From: Calditrichia bacterium
GTDB taxonomy: Bacteria > Calditrichota > Calditrichia > RBG-13-44-9 > J075
Assembly (NCBI GenBank): GCA_028284905.1
Contig: JANQQU010000056.1
Coordinates: 1-64,000, forward strand
Direction: 5' to 3'
Length of the DNA: 64,000 nucleotides
Shown here: one piece after another, positions 303 through 11,563 of the stretch
Position numbering within the stretch: the first letter of the stretch is position 1
Layout of the letters: each line of letters begins with the position of its first letter
The notes under the pieces: model-generated
Told to the model about the DNA's origin: nothing
Seen by the model: only the letters and a program-made list of their open reading frames with translations
The model's database searches: none
Translations under genes and position numbers: made by a program

Positions 303-407
303 ATGAGCAAGCAACTGAAAAGACGCAAGAAGCGCGCCCGCAGAAAAGAGTATATCAAGCGGCAAAAAGAAAAGGTGCGTAAGTTGACTTCAGGAAAAAA
401 GTCCTAA
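303..407 (+). CDS. 34-aa highly basic small protein
   Basis: The reading frame MSKQLKRRKKRARRKEYIKR... ends at a TAA at 405-407. More than half the residues are Lys or Arg. A strong GGAGG lies about 7 bases before the ATG, and a strong nested hairpin terminator follows the stop, so this looks like a complete single-gene transcription unit rather than chance. The composition resembles small nucleic-acid-binding or ribosome-associated proteins such as the AURKAIP1/COX24-like bacterial family, but the match is from general resemblance only. The RNA-binding role is inferred. Confidence 0.6.
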   Translation: MSKQLKRRKKRARRKEYIKRQKEKVRKLTSGKKS

Positions 408-517: not shown

Positions 518-1810
518 ATGAGGGATGTGGTTATTGTCGAAGGTTTACGGACACCTTTTGGAAAATTAGGAGGTGCACTAAGCCAGTATACGGCATACGA
601 CCTGGGAAAAATCGTCCTGCGGGAGCTGCTGGAGCGCATAGAGCTGCCCCGTCATGAGATTGACGAAATTATCTGGGGATGTTGTTTTCCCCCGGTGCAG
701 GCGATGAATATCGCCCGGACGATCGCCTTGAAATCCCGTGTACCCGCAGAAATACCCGCTTATACCGTTCAGCGCAATGGTGCGGCGGGACTGCAATCGG
801 TGGCCACCGGATTTTATCAAATTGCCAGTGGTAATGCCCGTACCGTTATTGCCGGTGGGGCAGAATCGATGAGTAATTTCCCCTTGCTTTTTCCGGAAGC
901 TTTTAAAGTATGGTTACAACAGTATCGGCAATTACGCTCCTACCGGGAAAAATTTCGTCACGTTCGTCGGTTTCGGCGCAGCCACCTGACGCCGGTAGAA
1001 AGCCTGAAGTTCGCAATCTGGGATTACGCCTGCGAGATGGATTTAAGCGGCATCGCAGACCAACTGGCCCACCAGTTTGGTATTGACCGCAACGTACAGG
1101 ATAAATATGCGCTGGAGAGTCATCAGCGGGCCGAACGGGCCAGTGAGAAGAATTGGTTTCGGGAAGAAATTGTGCCGGTCTATTTACCCGATCCTCTGGA
1201 AACCTCCACGATTCATCGCGATGAGCTCATCATACCAGCTGCCCAACCGGCTGATTTTGCCGGGGAAGACCCGCTCTTTTCCTCCATTTATAGCACCGCT
1301 ACAGCAAAAACGATTGCCCCGGTGGGGGATGGCGCTGCAGCATTGCTTTTAATGGAAGAATCCCGGGCACAGTCGCTGGTTGGTGCACCGGCGCTGGGGC
1401 GAATCAAATCGATCGCGTTTACCGGTGTGCCGCCGGAGCATGCCGGATTAGCGCCTGCCTATGCCGCGGCAAAAGCCTTGCAACAATGTGGGATGACCAT
1501 GCAGGATATCCAGGGAATGGAAATCGAAGAAACCGCTGCCTCGTTGGTTTTGGCCAATCAAAAACTATTTGCCGATCGTGATTTTTCCGCTAAAATTCTT
1601 GGTAAGCCAGGATTGTTGGAGGAATTGCCCGCTGATAAGCTGAATTCAAATGGCGGCGCTATCGCGTTGGGAAATCCGGTCGGCGCTTCAGCTGCCAGAT
1701 GCATTATCTCGATGCTGAAAACCATGCAACGCCGGCGCATGGAAACCGGATTGGTGACTATGGCAATTGGTGGGGGGCAAGGTGGCGCAATTATCTTGGA
1801 ACGGGTTTGA
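518..1810 (+). CDS. Thiolase-family protein lacking the catalytic residues
   Basis: Full-length thiolase fold (430 aa; the family is usually 390-430). It starts VVIVEGLRTPFGKLGGALS and keeps AGGAESMS, VGDGAAALLL and NGGAIALG. The residues that do chemistry are all changed. The nucleophilic Cys in the usual NRxCxSG stretch is Gly88 (QRNGAAG). The NEAF motif reads EETA. The GHP histidine is Asn386 (GNPVGAS). The C-terminal CIGGGQG cysteine is Ala416 (MAIGGGQG). A working 3-ketoacyl-CoA thiolase is therefore very unlikely. It lies 17 bp upstream of a FadB-type gene, the normal fadA/fadB partnership, which suggests a structural or acyl-CoA-binding subunit of that complex (inference). No frameshift or internal stop, so it looks maintained rather than decaying. 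Confidence 0.88.
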   Translation: MRDVVIVEGLRTPFGKLGGALSQYTAYDLGKIVLRELLERIELPRHEIDEIIWGCCFPPVQAMNIARTIALKSRVPAEIPAYTVQRNGAAGLQSVATGFYQIASGNARTVIAGGAESMSNFPLLFPEAFKVWLQQYRQLRSYREKFRHVRRFRRSHLTPVESLKFAIWDYACEMDLSGIADQLAHQFGIDRNVQDKYALESHQRAERASEKNWFREEIVPVYLPDPLETSTIHRDELIIPAAQPADFAGEDPLFSSIYSTATAKTIAPVGDGAAALLLMEESRAQSLVGAPALGRIKSIAFTGVPPEHAGLAPAYAAAKALQQCGMTMQDIQGMEIEETAASLVLANQKLFADRDFSAKILGKPGLLEELPADKLNSNGGAIALGNPVGASAARCIISMLKTMQRRRMETGLVTMAIGGGQGGAIILERV

Positions 1811-1827
1811 ACCGTTAAGGAGAGACT

Positions 1828-3993
1828 ATGGAACAGGCGTTCCATGCAGAATTTGCTGATACCGGTATTTTGAAAATTGTTTTCGATACCCCGAATAGCC
1901 GGGTGAACATTTTCAATGAAACTACCGGTTCGCAATTGAATCAGCTGATCGAAGAGTTGAAAGCCGATCCCTCCATTAAAGCGGCATTTTTAATGAGCGG
2001 CAAAGGGGAAAACTTTATTGCCGGTGCGGACATTAGTGGTATTCAGGGAATTTCATCCCCGGAGGATGCGTATGACAAATCCCGCCTGGGGCAGCAACTT
2101 TTTGAAAAATGGCGGGAACTGCGCTTTCCGACACTTGCAGCGATCAATGGTGCCTGTGTGGGAGGCGGGCTGGAATGGGCCCTGGCCTTCAGCTATCGAA
2201 TGGCCACCCGAAACAAAATTACCCGATTGGGACTACCGGAAGTAAAATTAGGGATCATCCCCGGCTGGGGAGGCACGGTGCGATTGCCTCGACTGATCGG
2301 TATGAAAAATTCCCTGAAGCTGATACTAACCGGGCAGTTGATAGATGCTGAGAAAGCATACAAGCAATGCCTGATTGACGAGATTGTATCACCGGCAGTG
2401 TTGGAGCAATCTGCACTCACTTTTTTGAAAACAATACTGCGCGATGGCGACCGCACAATTCTCCAGCGCAGACGTAAAAACCCTGCTCGGAATGGTTTCC
2501 TGGAAAAGACTCGTCTGGGGCGAAGTCAAGTGCGTAAGCGGGCTGAAAAGGATGTGCTGAAAAAAAGCCAGGGGCGTTACCCCGCACCGTTGGAGGCATT
2601 GAAGTCTGCCAGCTTTGCATTAGACAACAACCTTCATGATGCACTTATTTTTGAAGCAAAAAAATTTGCCGATCTTGCTGCCACCACAACCTGTAAAAAT
2701 CTGATCAGAGTTTATCAACTGACTGATTTTGTGAAGCAAGGCAATGCGACAGATGGTGATATTGATTCTGTCAATAAAATTGGCATTGTTGGTGCGGGAA
2801 CGATGGGGACTGCAATTGCAGAGCAGGCGGCAAAGCATGGCCATGTTGTGCGATTACGGGATGAAAGCGAAGCCGCCGTTTTACGGGCTTTTCAGCAGAT
2901 AAGTCATCATCTCCAACAGCGGGTTGAAAAAGGACGAATTAGCAAGCGCGAGGCGGAAGATTGCATCGATCAGGTTAGTTTTACATTGGATTATAGCGGT
3001 TTTGCCAAAGTTGATTTAGCAATTGAAACAGTCCCCGAAGAGCCAATCCTGAAAAGTGAAATTCTCCGAAAACTGGATAAATGTGCGCAACCCAATGCGA
3101 TCTTGGCAACCAATACGCAAAGCCTCTCAGTGAGCGAGCTTGCTGCCGCAACCGGCCGTCCTGCACAAGTAGTGGGATTCCACTTTCTCAATCCTTTTCT
3201 GAAGATGCCCCTGGTGGAAATTGTGCGCGGGAAGGAAACCAGCAGCGAAACAATATCTGTTGTTTACCAGCTGGCGAAACGTTGGGGAAGATTTCCAATT
3301 ATCGTGGAAGATCGCCCGGGATTCCTGCTCAATCGTTTGCTGAGCGTTTATTGGCGGGAAGCGTTAGAGATGATGGCCACGGGAGTGCCCATCGAAAATA
3401 TTGAAGATGCCATGCAGGATTTCGGTATGGGGATCCGGTTGCTGGAATTACTGGATAGAATCGGATTTCAAACCGCCGAACAGATAATGAGCACGGTCGC
3501 AGCTTCTTTGGGAGATCGTTTTCCGGCGAGTTCTGTTTTGAATACCTTGCTGGAAAGTGGGCGGGAGCGGGGATTTTATCCGGCGAAAAATGGACGTAAG
3601 GGAGCAGGCAGTCAGCGCAAAATTTATAAAACGCTTGGCGTCAAACCCCGTCGAAAAGTGGTCGATGAAGAAATTCAGGACCGGCTGATTTATGCTATGA
3701 TCAATGAAGCCGCCTATTGCCTGGAAGAAGGCATCGTGCAGGCACCGGAAGCAATTGATGTTGCCGCCGTATTTGGATTGGGATTTCCCCCATTTCGGGG
3801 CGGCTTACTGCATTTTGCCGATGACCGCGGGGCAGATCGTATTATCAATCGTCTGCGCTATTTCACCAATGCGTTTGGTGAACATTTTTCCCCGGCGCCT
3901 TTGCTCAGCGATTTAGCCACCCAGAAAAGCACATTCTATGAATATTGGATTAAGAGCAGTAGACTTAAGGAAGATGCTTCCCCGCAAGAATAA
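1828..3993 (+). CDS. FadB/FadJ-type enoyl-CoA hydratase / 3-hydroxyacyl-CoA dehydrogenase
   Basis: Bifunctional beta-oxidation enzyme of 721 aa, the usual size. The N-terminal crotonase domain has the oxyanion-hole stretch IAGADISGI, VGGGLEWALA and LPEVKLGIIPGWGG; both catalytic glutamates are present (Glu116 and Glu138). The NAD-binding domain begins near residue 317 with IGIVGAGTMG (about 320-325). The dehydrogenase motif GFHFLNPFLKMPLVEIV contains catalytic His452, and DRPGFLLNRLL supplies the Asn. A serine usually found in NTSSL is Gln here (NTQSL), a minor change. Expected reactions are hydration of trans-2-enoyl-CoA and NAD-dependent oxidation of L-3-hydroxyacyl-CoA in the cytoplasm. 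The ribosome-binding site AAGGAGAG precedes the ATG, and the upstream partner is the thiolase-like gene. Confidence 0.93.
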   Translation: MEQAFHAEFADTGILKIVFDTPNSRVNIFNETTGSQLNQLIEELKADPSIKAAFLMSGKGENFIAGADISGIQGISSPEDAYDKSRLGQQLFEKWRELRFPTLAAINGACVGGGLEWALAFSYRMATRNKITRLGLPEVKLGIIPGWGGTVRLPRLIGMKNSLKLILTGQLIDAEKAYKQCLIDEIVSPAVLEQSALTFLKTILRDGDRTILQRRRKNPARNGFLEKTRLGRSQVRKRAEKDVLKKSQGRYPAPLEALKSASFALDNNLHDALIFEAKKFADLAATTTCKNLIRVYQLTDFVKQGNATDGDIDSVNKIGIVGAGTMGTAIAEQAAKHGHVVRLRDESEAAVLRAFQQISHHLQQRVEKGRISKREAEDCIDQVSFTLDYSGFAKVDLAIETVPEEPILKSEILRKLDKCAQPNAILATNTQSLSVSELAAATGRPAQVVGFHFLNPFLKMPLVEIVRGKETSSETISVVYQLAKRWGRFPIIVEDRPGFLLNRLLSVYWREALEMMATGVPIENIEDAMQDFGMGIRLLELLDRIGFQTAEQIMSTVAASLGDRFPASSVLNTLLESGRERGFYPAKNGRKGAGSQRKIYKTLGVKPRRKVVDEEIQDRLIYAMINEAAYCLEEGIVQAPEAIDVAAVFGLGFPPFRGGLLHFADDRGADRIINRLRYFTNAFGEHFSPAPLLSDLATQKSTFYEYWIKSSRLKEDASPQE

Positions 3994-7551: not shown

Positions 7552-8757
7552 ATGAAGAAAATTTTGACGATGTATCAATTATTGATTTTGCTGGTAATCT
7601 CTGCGATGTCTGTTGGTATTTCCGCACAACAGACAATTAATGGTTCTATAACCCACGACAATGGGCAGCGAAGTTACACCCTCTATGTTCCGGCCAGTTA
7701 TAGTGGGAATACGCCTGTACCTCTGGTGTTAAATTTTCATGGATATACAAGCTCAGCAACGGTACAGATGAACACCGGGGACTTTCGCGCTATTGCAGAC
7801 ACCGCCGGCTTTATCATCGTTCATCCGCAAGGATCATTATTTAATGGAAATACCCATTGGAATGTCGGTGGCTGGACGGTGGGGAGTACGGCCGATGATG
7901 TCGGTTTTACCAGCGCATTACTTGATTCCCTTTCTGCCGAATATTTGATTGATCCTGATAGGGTCTACAGTACCGGATTTTCAAACGGGGGATATTTCAG
8001 TTTTAAACTGGCCTGTCAATTGGGAGACAGAATCGCTGCGATCGCTTCGGTTGCGGGATCGATGACGCCGGAAATTTATAATGCCTGTTCACCTACTCAT
8101 TCCACGCCAGTCCTGCAGATGCACGGTACCAACGACAATGTCGTTCCTTACAATGGTGCAAACTGGACTCGTTCTATAGACGACGCGATGCAATATTGGG
8201 TGGATTACAATAATTGCGAAACAACGCCGGTAACGACCGCACTGGAAGATATTAATACTTCGGACGGAAGCACTGTGGAGCATATTGTTTATCATGGCGG
8301 CGATAATGGTGCGACTGCGGAGCATTACAAAATTACCGGTGGCCGGCATACCTGGCCGGGCAATGCGCAAGGCGGTTTCGGCACAAACATGGATATTAAC
8401 GCATCGGTAGAGATTTGGCGGTTTTTTTCCCGATATGATATCAATGGTCTGATGAATCCCACCGGGATTCGGGAAATTGCTGAACAGTCACCGAATAATT
8501 TCCGCTTATCCCAAAACTTTCCGAATCCTTTTAATCCTTCGACGATTATTTCTTTCACAATTCCCGAAGCAGCTTATGTGGTATTGACTGTCTATAATAC
8601 CCTGGGTGAAAGCGTCGCAATTTTGGCCGAAGAAAACTTATCCGCAGGGGCATATCAATACGATTGGCAGGCAGAGAATTTACCCGGCGGGGTTTATTTC
8701 TATCGCCTGCAGGCGGGAAATTTTCAGTCGGTAAAAAAGGCGGTATTGCTTAAATAG
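7552..8757 (+). CDS. Secreted esterase (PHB depolymerase/feruloyl-esterase type) with C-terminal sorting domain
   Basis: Signal peptide at residues 1-26 (hydrophobic LLILLVISAMSVGISAQ). An alpha/beta-hydrolase domain of the LpqC/poly(3-hydroxybutyrate) depolymerase type follows, with nucleophile Ser144 in GFSNGG, an Asp in HGTNDNVVPY and a His in TGGRHTWPG. The last 80 residues form a type IX secretion-style sorting domain (QNFPNPFNPSTIISF ... KKAVLLK). The protein is therefore expected to be exported and anchored or released at the cell surface, cleaving ester bonds in polymers; the substrate is unknown. A clear GGAG precedes the ATG and a terminator follows. Confidence 0.9.
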   Translation: MKKILTMYQLLILLVISAMSVGISAQQTINGSITHDNGQRSYTLYVPASYSGNTPVPLVLNFHGYTSSATVQMNTGDFRAIADTAGFIIVHPQGSLFNGNTHWNVGGWTVGSTADDVGFTSALLDSLSAEYLIDPDRVYSTGFSNGGYFSFKLACQLGDRIAAIASVAGSMTPEIYNACSPTHSTPVLQMHGTNDNVVPYNGANWTRSIDDAMQYWVDYNNCETTPVTTALEDINTSDGSTVEHIVYHGGDNGATAEHYKITGGRHTWPGNAQGGFGTNMDINASVEIWRFFSRYDINGLMNPTGIREIAEQSPNNFRLSQNFPNPFNPSTIISFTIPEAAYVVLTVYNTLGESVAILAEENLSAGAYQYDWQAENLPGGVYFYRLQAGNFQSVKKAVLLK

Positions 8758-8787
8758 AAAATTTATGAGCAGCAACCTATTTTTTCT

Positions 8788-8826
8788 CCCCGTGCTCTAG
8801 TAAAGAGTGCACGGGGATTTTTTATT
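8788..8826 (+). terminator. Intrinsic terminator after the secreted esterase
   Basis: CCCCGTGC (8788-8795) pairs with GCACGGGG (8809-8816), extended by TCT/AGA, and is followed by ATTTTTTATT. Confidence 0.85.
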
Positions 8827-8934
8827 GAACCATTTATAAATCACCACCTTGTTTCCGGGGAAGTTTCAATTTAAATTCTGCCTCGTACTTTTGATCTAAG
8901 ATCGATTTTGGCATTTAACCGGAGACATATTTTA

Positions 8935-10938
8935 ATGCATATCCCCCCATTGTTAACAGATGTCGTAATTATTTTTTCTTTGGCCATCGTTGTGCTTTTT
9001 GTTTGTCACCGATTGCGTTTGCCGGCAGTAGTTGGTTTCCTATTTACCGGCATATTCGTTGGTCCATTCGGTGCCGGATTAATCAAGGATATGCACGATG
9101 TGGAAATTCTGGCGGAAATAGGCGTTGTCCTGCTTTTATTTACCATCGGCATTGAATTTTCCCTGGAAAAGTTGTTGAAGATTCGTAAGCCGGTGTTGAT
9201 TGGTGGGCCGCTGCAGGTCTTCATCACTTTCACTGCTTCCTACTTTATTGCCCGCGAATTTGGCCAGGCGGTGAATAACTCGATTTTTATCGGCTTTCTG
9301 GTGGCACTAAGCAGTACAGCAATTGTGATCAAACTTTTTCAGGATAAAGCCGAAATCGATACGCCGCAGGGGAGCACAGCCCTGGGCGTGCTGATCTTTC
9401 AGGATATTATCGTTGTGCCGATGATTCTTATTACCCCTTTACTGGGCGGCGCATCCGGCAGTGTCGGAGAATCTTTACTGATTCTGCTTGGTAAAGCAGC
9501 AGCCATCATCCTGCTGGTAATTGTCAGTATCAAATATATTGTCCCGAAATTACTTTACCAGATTGCCCGGACTCGCAACAACGAACTTTTTTTGCTCAGC
9601 GTAGTAGTGCTTTGCTTTGGGGTTGCCTGGCTGACTTCCCTGGCAGGATTAAGTCTCGCTCTCGGTGCTTTTCTTGCCGGGCTAATTATTTCGGAATCTG
9701 AATATAGTCATCATGCTTTGGGGAACATCCTTCCTTTTCGTGATGTCTTTACCACGTTTTTCTTTATTTCTATCGGCATGATGCTTGATGTTCGTTTTTT
9801 GATAGAACATGTGGCTATTATAAGCGCCATTGTGCTCGGGTCAATTCTATTGAAGGCCTTCATTGCCGGCTTTGCTACATTGCTCCTCGGGTTTTCACTG
9901 CGTACGGCGATTTTAGCCGGTCTCGCCCTGGCACAAATCGGGGAATTCTCCTTTATTCTTTCCCGGGTTGGCAGCGAGCATGGCATATTTGGTGATGTAA
10001 TCAACCAGGGCTTTTTGGCTGTCGCCGTATTAACCATGGCTTTGACGCCGTTTATCATGGCGTTGGGGCCCCGGCTGGCCGACCTGGTCTTAAAGTTACC
10101 GCTCCCCAGTAAACTCGTATCCGGAATGAGTCCTGCCCCAGCGAACCTCATGGAAAAGTTGGAAGATCATTTAGTTATCATTGGTTATGGCATTATTGGA
10201 CGAAACGTGGCGCGGGCAGCTTGCCTGGCAGGCGTTCCATACATTATTATCGAAATGAATCCCGACACAGTCCGTAGTGAACGGGCCAAGGGCGAGCCGA
10301 TTTTTTATGGCGATGCGACGTACGAATCGGTACTTCACATTACCCATATCGAAAAGGCCCGGGTAGTGGTTGTCGCTATTAACGACCCAACAGCTACCCG
10401 ACGTATAACCAGCAGGGTCCGCCGGATGAATCCCGCCTGCCATATGATTGTGCGTAGCCGTTATTTACAGGAAATGGCCCCATTGCATAAGCTGGGGGCT
10501 AATGAAGTTATCCCCGAAGAATATGAAACTGCTGTAGAAATATTTGCCAGGGTATTGGCTAAATACCTGGTCAGCAAAGATGAAATTGATAAATTAGTGA
10601 CCGAAGTACGTGCCGATGAATATGAGATGTTCCGCAGTCGCTCCCGTCCCGAGCCGATTGCTTCGGAAACGGAATTGCATCTTCATGATATTGATATTAG
10701 CGCGTTCCGGGTTGAGCCGGATTCTTCGCTGATCAATAAAACCCTGGCGGAAATAAATTTTCGCCGCCTCTATGGGGTAACGATTGTTGCCATTCGCCGG
10801 AATTGGGAAGTGCTTTCTAATCCGGGAGCGGATAGCCGGATTTACCCGGAGGATGTGTTGTTTATGCTGGGGGCGCCGGAGAAAATTACTGAAGCAATTC
10901 AAACTTGTGCGACACTTATCGATGAACAGAAGAAATAG
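8935..10938 (+). CDS. CPA2-family cation:proton antiporter with RCK domains (KefB/YbaL-like)
   Basis: 667 aa from the chosen ATG. An in-frame TTG at 8908 exists, but GGAGA at 8920-8924 is spaced correctly for 8935. The N-terminal two thirds contain about 12 hydrophobic segments of a Na+/H+ exchanger fold (for example LPAVVGFLFTGIFVGPFGAG and LSLALGAFLAGLIISES). A TrkA-N/RCK domain follows with the nucleotide-binding motif VIIGYGIIGRNVA, and then a TrkA-C-like domain. This is the architecture of potassium or sodium:proton antiporters gated by NAD(H) or a similar ligand. The next gene starts 10 bp downstream, so the carbonic anhydrase is probably co-transcribed, which would fit pH or bicarbonate homeostasis (inference). 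Confidence 0.92.
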   Translation: MHIPPLLTDVVIIFSLAIVVLFVCHRLRLPAVVGFLFTGIFVGPFGAGLIKDMHDVEILAEIGVVLLLFTIGIEFSLEKLLKIRKPVLIGGPLQVFITFTASYFIAREFGQAVNNSIFIGFLVALSSTAIVIKLFQDKAEIDTPQGSTALGVLIFQDIIVVPMILITPLLGGASGSVGESLLILLGKAAAIILLVIVSIKYIVPKLLYQIARTRNNELFLLSVVVLCFGVAWLTSLAGLSLALGAFLAGLIISESEYSHHALGNILPFRDVFTTFFFISIGMMLDVRFLIEHVAIISAIVLGSILLKAFIAGFATLLLGFSLRTAILAGLALAQIGEFSFILSRVGSEHGIFGDVINQGFLAVAVLTMALTPFIMALGPRLADLVLKLPLPSKLVSGMSPAPANLMEKLEDHLVIIGYGIIGRNVARAACLAGVPYIIIEMNPDTVRSERAKGEPIFYGDATYESVLHITHIEKARVVVVAINDPTATRRITSRVRRMNPACHMIVRSRYLQEMAPLHKLGANEVIPEEYETAVEIFARVLAKYLVSKDEIDKLVTEVRADEYEMFRSRSRPEPIASETELHLHDIDISAFRVEPDSSLINKTLAEINFRRLYGVTIVAIRRNWEVLSNPGADSRIYPEDVLFMLGAPEKITEAIQTCATLIDEQKK

Positions 10939-10948
10939 GAGAGAATAT

Positions 10949-11563
10949 ATGATTTCAGCAGTAGAGGCACTGGAAAAACTAAAGGATGGAAATCGCCGCT
11001 TCACTACAAATTCTATGAAACCGACGGCTTTAACAGATGACATCCAGCGGGAAGAATTAGTGGGAGGCCAGGCGCCCTTCGCAATTATCCTCGGCTGTGC
11101 CGATTCCAGAGTGCCGGCCGAATTGGTGTTCGATCAGGGACTGGGTGATTTGTTCGTGATTCGGGTGGCGGGCAATATTGCTTCCCCTTCGCAAATTGGC
11201 AGCATCGAATATGCTGCTGGACACCTCGGCACTCGTTTGATAGTTGTGCTGGGACATACCGGCTGCGGTGCTGTGCAGGCAACCTTATCGGAAATGGCCC
11301 AACCGCCGGCAGAGCGCTCACCGAACCTGAGTGCAATTGTTGACCGAATTCGCCCCGCGCTGGAAAGCCTTTGGTCTGAAAGAGGCAGCAAAGAGCCGGG
11401 AGATCTACTGGCTGATGCCGTCCGTGCAAATGTACAAGCCTCGGCTGCGCAACTGCGGGAAGGATCTACTATCCTTGAAAACCTGATGGATAATGATGGA
11501 TTGTTAGTAGTCGGCGCAGAATACTCGCTGGCAACCGGCGCGGTCGATTTTTTTAATAACTGA
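10949..11563 (+). CDS. Beta-class carbonic anhydrase
   Basis: 204 aa from the ATG preceded by AGGAGAG. A longer frame starting at 10784 overlaps the antiporter and is rejected. Zinc and catalytic residues are present: Cys50, Asp52 and Arg54 in CADSR, and His103 and Cys106 in GHTGCGAV. The enzyme interconverts CO2 and bicarbonate in the cytoplasm. It follows the antiporter gene by 10 bp, suggesting one operon; a proton-producing reaction beside a proton antiporter is a sensible pairing. No signal peptide, so it is not a periplasmic form. Confidence 0.95.
   Translation: MISAVEALEKLKDGNRRFTTNSMKPTALTDDIQREELVGGQAPFAIILGCADSRVPAELVFDQGLGDLFVIRVAGNIASPSQIGSIEYAAGHLGTRLIVVLGHTGCGAVQATLSEMAQPPAERSPNLSAIVDRIRPALESLWSERGSKEPGDLLADAVRANVQASAAQLREGSTILENLMDNDGLLVVGAEYSLATGAVDFFNN

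What the first reader, a model, noticed from the sequence alone, without database searches (positions are those of the whole stretch)
518..1810. A maintained thiolase with every catalytic residue replaced
Cys (Gly88), the NEAF asparagine (EETA), His (Asn386) and the second Cys (Ala416) are all gone, yet the frame is intact, the fold motifs persist and it sits directly before an intact FadB-type enzyme whose own catalytic residues are present. This implies a selected non-thiolase role, for example a scaffold, an acyl-CoA-binding regulator, or an oxidation complex that stops at 3-ketoacyl-CoA and hands over to another enzyme.
Basis: partly seen in the sequence, partly recalled or inferred. Interest (0 to 1): 0.75.

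Follow-up and report, generated by a model that had tools for sequence, protein, structure and literature searches.

The report
Dead thiolase in fat-burning complex
A bacterium keeps an intact gene for a fat-burning enzyme whose four catalytic residues are all gone, next to a partner in which only the hydratase part looks fully intact; the pair may survive as a hydratase built on a lifeless scaffold, although nothing has been tested in the laboratory.

Summary
ORF 518-1810 is a full-length, open FadI/FadA-type thiolase in which Cys, Asn (NEAF), His and the second Cys are Gly88, Glu337, Asn386 and Ala416. The replacements need at least seven base changes, so sequencing error is unlikely. Orthologues elsewhere in the class keep all four residues (19 of 19 fully read). 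All four orthologues found in the window's own family are altered, each differently: one other lost both cysteines, and two of one genus lost only the Asn.

FadJ (1828-3993) keeps both hydratase glutamates, but its dehydrogenase half is eroded too: the essential Ser is Gln431 and the PMGP loop is gone. Of positions invariant in canonical orthologues, this pair changed 9% in the hydratase, 31% in the dehydrogenase and 35% in the thiolase. The genome has five other canonical thiolases, two of them in FadI-FadJ operons.

Best reading: a trifunctional complex reduced to its hydratase, with the dead thiolase kept as its dimeric core. The erosion and its location are shown; the scaffold function is inferred. 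Late decay of a redundant copy is the main rival. New variant of a known kind (pseudoenzyme subunit).

The parts
518..1810 (+). Thiolase-fold protein (FadI/FadA type beta subunit), 430 aa, all four catalytic residues replaced
   Evidence: AlphaFold2 pLDDT 83, pTM 0.85, best PDB matches are thiolases at TM 0.84-0.85
779..781 (+). Codon GGT: Gly88 in place of the nucleophilic Cys
1526..1528 (+). Codon GAA: Glu337 in place of the NEAF Asn (EETA)
1673..1675 (+). Codon AAT: Asn386 in place of the GHP His
1763..1765 (+). Codon GCA: Ala416 in place of the CxG Cys
1811..1827 (+). 17-base gap between the two genes, holding AAGGAGAG (1817-1824) before ATG 1828; consistent with one operon
   Evidence: read
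1828..3993 (+). FadJ/FadB-type alpha subunit, 721 aa (ECH + HAD)
   Evidence: AlphaFold2 pLDDT 86, pTM 0.83
1828..2397 (+). Enoyl-CoA hydratase domain (residues 1-190), 4 of 44 canonical invariant positions changed; Glu116 (2173-2175) and Glu138 (2239-2241) kept
2758..3942 (+). 3-hydroxyacyl-CoA dehydrogenase part (residues 311-705), eroded: 34 of 110 invariant positions changed; GxGxxG, His452, Glu464, Asn502 kept
3118..3120 (+). Gln431 in place of the dehydrogenase Ser (NTS to NTQ)
3430..3441 (+). Residues 535-538, PMGP loop replaced by GIRL

Best explanation
The locus encodes a beta-oxidation trifunctional-type complex (thiolase beta subunit plus FadJ alpha subunit) that has lost its thiolase site completely and probably most of its dehydrogenase activity, while keeping the enoyl-CoA hydratase site. 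Shown: the substitutions, their concentration in thiolase and dehydrogenase rather than hydratase, an open frame over a long branch, and intact alternative complexes in the genome. Inferred: the dead thiolase is retained because its dimer is the core on which alpha subunits assemble, so the complex works as a hydratase (perhaps also enoyl-CoA isomerase) that releases 3-hydroxyacyl-CoA to the intact FadI-FadJ complexes.
For: Canonical-invariant positions changed in the window pair: ECH 4/44, HAD 34/110, thiolase 50/143 (Fisher ECH vs thiolase p=6e-4, ECH vs HAD p=0.004). End-branch lengths of the window: ECH 0.35, HAD 0.84, thiolase 0.77, while single-genome branches of the other class families run about 0.2-0.6, 0.2-0.6 and 0.1-0.3. 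The same split (ECH 9%, HAD about 30%, thiolase 22-37%) is seen in G003 and G005. About 17 stops expected if the thiolase's replacements had been neutral, none present. Variant thiolases of G005/G006 have dN/dS 0.15. Within the thiolase the N-terminal core is least changed (7/41) and the loop domain that shapes the CoA pocket most (23/43). Thiolase and alpha genes stay adjacent in G003 and G005 although the genes around them differ. Two intact FadI-FadJ operons in the genome. In known complexes the thiolase dimer is the core of the alpha2beta2 tetramer (PMC11301753).
Against: No direct evidence of expression, assembly or hydratase activity. His452, Glu464, Asn502 and the NAD motif of the dehydrogenase are kept, so it may not be fully dead. 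No genome of the same genus is held, so present-day selection on this very gene cannot be measured; dS is saturated or nearly so against all relatives. G005 has lost about 38 residues of the thiolase loop domain, which looks like ongoing decay.
Confidence: 0.55

Rival explanations
1. Redundant copy in slow decay: with two intact FadI-FadJ operons present, the whole locus is losing function, and the open frames simply have not broken yet.
For: Different alterations in each genus, roughly 3-4 fold longer thiolase branches than most canonical orthologues, an in-frame 38-residue loss in G005, no orthologue detected in three family genomes, and a second eroded thiolase-FadN pair in the same genome.
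Against: No stop in 430 codons where about 17 would be expected under neutrality for this number of replacements; the hydratase domain evolves at a normal rate; the partner's frame is open too. A recent onset of decay is not excluded.
Confidence: 0.25
2. Regulator or acyl-CoA-binding partner: the dead thiolase still binds CoA esters, or mixes into hetero-oligomers with the active FadI/FadJ paralogues and tunes them.
For: Fold kept; pseudoenzyme subunits that regulate partners are known in general (background knowledge).
Against: The loop domain and the TAGN-S pantetheine loop that shape CoA binding are the most altered segments; no regulatory gene was recognised among the next four genes.
Confidence: 0.1
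3. New catalytic activity, as in the thiolase-fold aldolases (Ltp2, Sal) that work without thiolase chemistry and use new residues of the NEAF-equivalent loop.
For: Precedent of thiolase-fold enzymes with changed catalytic residues that work beside a hydratase (PMC12329534).
Against: The NEAF-equivalent loop is EETA here, HEST in G003, GEAF or SEAF in G005/G006: no shared new residues. No DUF35 partner is seen next to it; its nearest relatives are FadI/FadA type.
Confidence: 0.07

Closest known systems
FadI-FadJ / FadA-FadB beta-oxidation trifunctional complex (E. coli anEcTFE, Pseudomonas, mycobacterial and human TFE)
   Same: Gene pair, domain order, whole-length homology; best PDB matches by sequence are FadI (8bnu, 8bnr) and FadJ (8bnr, 6ysv).
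   Different: All thiolase catalytic residues and the dehydrogenase Ser and PMGP loop are lost; only the hydratase site is intact.
Thiolase-like protein 1 (TLP1) of Mycobacterium smegmatis
   Same: Thiolase fold with Cys to Gly and loss of the NEAF, GHP and CxG motifs; no thiolase activity (PMC3406046).
   Different: TLP1 is a monomer with an extra C-terminal barrel and its altered motifs (YSCF, GGL, NGG) are conserved among homologues; here there is no extra domain and the altered motifs differ between genera.
Steroid side-chain aldolases Ltp2 and Sal
   Same: Thiolase-fold proteins without thiolase chemistry, paired with a hydratase subunit (PMC12329534).
   Different: They carry defined new catalytic residues (paired Tyr in TcLtp2, Tyr302/Cys304 in CtSal) and bind a DUF35 domain; neither is seen here.
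BbsCD, a dehydrogenase with inactive pseudoenzyme subunits in anaerobic toluene degradation
   Same: A beta-oxidation-type enzyme that keeps a dead homologous subunit (title cited in PMC10818641; the work itself was not read).
   Different: Different fold family (short-chain dehydrogenase); not a thiolase.

Membership tests
Thiolase family (fold and sequence) | Thiolase_N and Thiolase_C domains over the full length; thiolase fold | tested here: met
Catalytic thiolase (acetyl-CoA C-acyltransferase) | Nucleophilic Cys, NEAF/HEAF Asn or His, GHP His, CxG Cys | tested here: not met
   G88, E337, N386, A416
Catalytic thiolase (acetyl-CoA C-acyltransferase) | Thiolytic activity | not testable with these tools
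   needs the protein
FadI equivalog (TIGR02446, NF006516) | Score over the curated cut-off | tested here: not met
   256 vs 712 and 321 vs 560 bits; only the subfamily model TIGR01930 is passed
FadI-FadJ type trifunctional complex | Adjacent thiolase and ECH-HAD genes | tested here: met
   17-base gap, same strand; same pair adjacent in relatives
FadI-FadJ type trifunctional complex | Two hydratase glutamates | tested here: met
   E116, E138, invariant in A2
FadI-FadJ type trifunctional complex | Dehydrogenase Ser/His/Glu/Asn | tested here: not met
   Ser is Gln431; His452, Glu464 and Asn502 kept
FadI-FadJ type trifunctional complex | alpha2beta2 assembly | not testable with these tools
   no complex prediction available
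Ltp2/Sal thiolase-fold aldolase | New catalytic Tyr/Tyr or Tyr/Cys in the NEAF-equivalent loop | tested here: not met
   loop is EETA
Ltp2/Sal thiolase-fold aldolase | DUF35 partner | tested here: not met
   none in the protein, FadJ or the next four genes; not searched genome-wide
TLP1 subfamily | YSCF, GGL, NGG motifs and C-terminal barrel | tested here: not met
   motifs EETA, GNP, AIG; protein ends after the thiolase domain

The most novel reading that the evidence does not exclude
A trifunctional beta-oxidation complex converted, within one bacterial family, into a single-function hydratase that keeps the dead thiolase dimer (and a weakened dehydrogenase) purely as assembly scaffold, part of a wider habit of this family, which also holds eroded thiolase-FadN pairs.
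Probability: 0.35. Interest if true: 0.65.

Novelty: new variant of a known kind. Interest (0 to 1): 0.55.

Why it matters
Trifunctional complexes are understood as channelling machines in which three sites work together. A family in which two of the three sites erode in parallel while the third is preserved gives a natural series (intact, half lost, fully lost) for testing whether the thiolase dimer is needed as a scaffold apart from its chemistry. It also warns that homology alone would annotate 518-1810 as an acetyl-CoA acyltransferase (it passes the TIGR01930 cut-off), which it can hardly be.

Tried and rejected
Sequencing error or frameshift: rejected, multi-base codon changes and a clean frame. 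Contaminant contig: not specifically tested; the thiolase and FadJ trees both place the genes with the window's own family. Shared dead ancestor of the window and G003: left open; the thiolase tree (84/65, with a long-branch warning) and rpoB (80/77) pair them, but FadJ pairs the window with G005 (92/88) and narrowly rejects window+G003 (p 0.043). A scan of named genomes found only a distant canonical thiolase. No structured RNA in the window; the promoter/terminator scan was uninformative. Paper searches found no report of a catalytically dead thiolase subunit in a trifunctional complex; the library is partial.

Full report
Observation. The frame 518-1810 is a complete, uninterrupted thiolase-fold gene of 430 codons, matching Pfam Thiolase_N and Thiolase_C and the NCBIfam subfamily TIGR01930 over its whole length. 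Alignment with E. coli FadI and with close relatives shows Cys, Asn of NEAF, His of GHP and Cys of CxG replaced by Gly88, Glu337, Asn386 and Ala416. AlphaFold2 on 16 orthologues gives a confident model (pLDDT 83, pTM 0.85) whose 50 best structural matches are all thiolases; the weak part (161-172) lies in the loop domain.

Relatives. The window's genome is an 8.55 Mb, 93-contig assembly and the window starts at the beginning of contig C67. Searches of the class (40 genomes held) give 24 recognisable orthologues including the window's own and the split match of G005; the others are 39-53% identical to it. Of the 20 outside the window's family, 19 can be read at all four sites and all have Cys, Asn, His, Cys; the twentieth (G027) has an in-frame stop after the first site, which is canonical. 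In the window's family the orthologue is found in four of seven genomes, and all four are altered: the window (G, E, N, A); G003 (G, H, H, A); G005 (C, G, H, C, with a 38-residue in-frame loss in the loop domain); G006 (C, S, H, last site not covered). The family clade is supported in the thiolase tree (98/95) and the FadJ tree (100/99). Whether the window and G003 share a dead ancestor is not settled.

Partner. FadJ at 1828-3993 starts 17 bases after the thiolase stop. Its hydratase domain keeps Glu116 and Glu138, 22 apart as in the mycobacterial enzyme (119/141, PMC11301753). The dehydrogenase part keeps GxGxxG, His452, Glu464 and Asn502, but the Ser reported as essential in FadB2 (Ser122, equal to Ser137 of human HAD; PMC6333283) is Gln431, and the PMGP loop is GIRL. 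G005 has lost the dehydrogenase His and Ser; G003 has TTS for NTS and EQGP for PMGP.

Where the erosion lies. Counting positions invariant in 11-12 canonical orthologues, the window changed 4 of 44 in the hydratase, 34 of 110 in the dehydrogenase and 50 of 143 in the thiolase; G003 and G005 show the same split. Fisher tests give p=6e-4 (hydratase vs thiolase) and p=0.004 (hydratase vs dehydrogenase). End-branch lengths say the same: 0.35, 0.84 and 0.77 for the window, against roughly 0.2-0.6, 0.2-0.6 and 0.1-0.3 for single-genome branches of the other class families. Within the thiolase, the N-terminal core changed at 7 of 41 invariant positions and the loop domain at 23 of 43. The loop domain shapes the CoA pocket (PMC3406046). 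That the N-terminal core carries much of the dimer contact is my background knowledge, not tested.

Is it maintained? At the observed number of replacements about 17 stop codons would be expected without selection; none is present. dN/dS between G005 and G006, both with altered NEAF motifs, is 0.15 at dS 0.23. Against the window itself synonymous sites are saturated or nearly so, and recent relaxation cannot be excluded. The genome has five other thiolases with canonical residues, two of them in FadI-FadJ operons on contigs C7 and C2, so fatty-acid oxidation does not need this one.

Mechanism. In known trifunctional complexes the thiolase dimer is the core on which the alpha subunits sit (PMC11301753). 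A dead thiolase dimer can therefore be kept for assembly while the hydratase does the chemistry. The pair stays together in G003 and G005 although the genes around it differ from those in the window and in the sister family. This makes the scaffolded hydratase the best reading (0.55), with late decay of a redundant copy as the main rival (0.25). Regulation and new chemistry are less likely: the CoA-shaping segments are the most altered, and the replaced residues are not shared between genera.

Wider pattern. The same genome carries a second eroded pair on contig C4, a thiolase with Cys kept but His to Asn and Cys to Ala, followed by a FadN-type protein with a broken GxGxxG and one hydratase Glu lost; G006 (C392) has another eroded thiolase-FadN pair besides a canonical one on C73, and a FadN-type protein of G002 (C19) also looks eroded. 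In G017 the dehydrogenase domain of the orthologous FadJ has lost its motifs while hydratase and thiolase sites are intact. Loss of single sites from these complexes is thus recurrent in this class. From genome size and single-contig form I suspect G017 is Caldithrix abyssi and the phylum Calditrichota; this is from memory and was not tested.

Known or new. Thiolase-fold proteins without thiolase chemistry are known (TLP1, Ltp2, Sal), and dead subunits in beta-oxidation-type enzymes are known (BbsCD). I found no report of a dead thiolase subunit in a FadI-FadJ type complex, in a partial library. I file it as a new variant of a known kind.

Noticed in passing
G000 contig C4, L089:7772-11311 (thiolase 7772-8962, FadN-type 8966-11311): A second eroded pair in the window's own genome: thiolase with Cys kept but His to Asn and CxG Cys to Ala, and a FadN-type partner with broken GxGxxG (GANSLG) and a hydratase Glu replaced by Ser.
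   Followed up: partly
L128 (G006:C392) and L123 (G002:C19): Further eroded members: in G006 a thiolase with Cys to Gly, NEAF to DESF and CxG Cys to Gly next to a FadN-type protein; in G002 a FadN-type protein with altered motifs.
   Followed up: partly
L076:9024-11033 (G017): FadJ orthologue whose dehydrogenase domain has lost GxGxxG, NTS, His and Asn while the hydratase glutamates and the adjacent thiolase sites are intact.
   Followed up: partly
L086:7289-8575 (G027): The orthologous thiolase is split by an in-frame stop; could be assembly error or a fresh break.
   Followed up: no
L071:5948-7138 (G005): In-frame loss of about 38 residues in the thiolase loop domain compared with G006 of the same genus.
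   Followed up: no
L087, L097, L098 (FadJ of the FadI-FadJ operons, contigs G000:C7, G003:C26, G005:C160): The Asn of the dehydrogenase NR motif is Thr (YTTRVLAP) in all three, though the other sites are canonical.
   Followed up: no
window 303-407: Small lysine/arginine-rich ORF (MSKQLKRRKKRARRKEY...) upstream of the thiolase, possibly an AURKAIP1/COX24-type small protein; from reading the sequence only.
   Followed up: no
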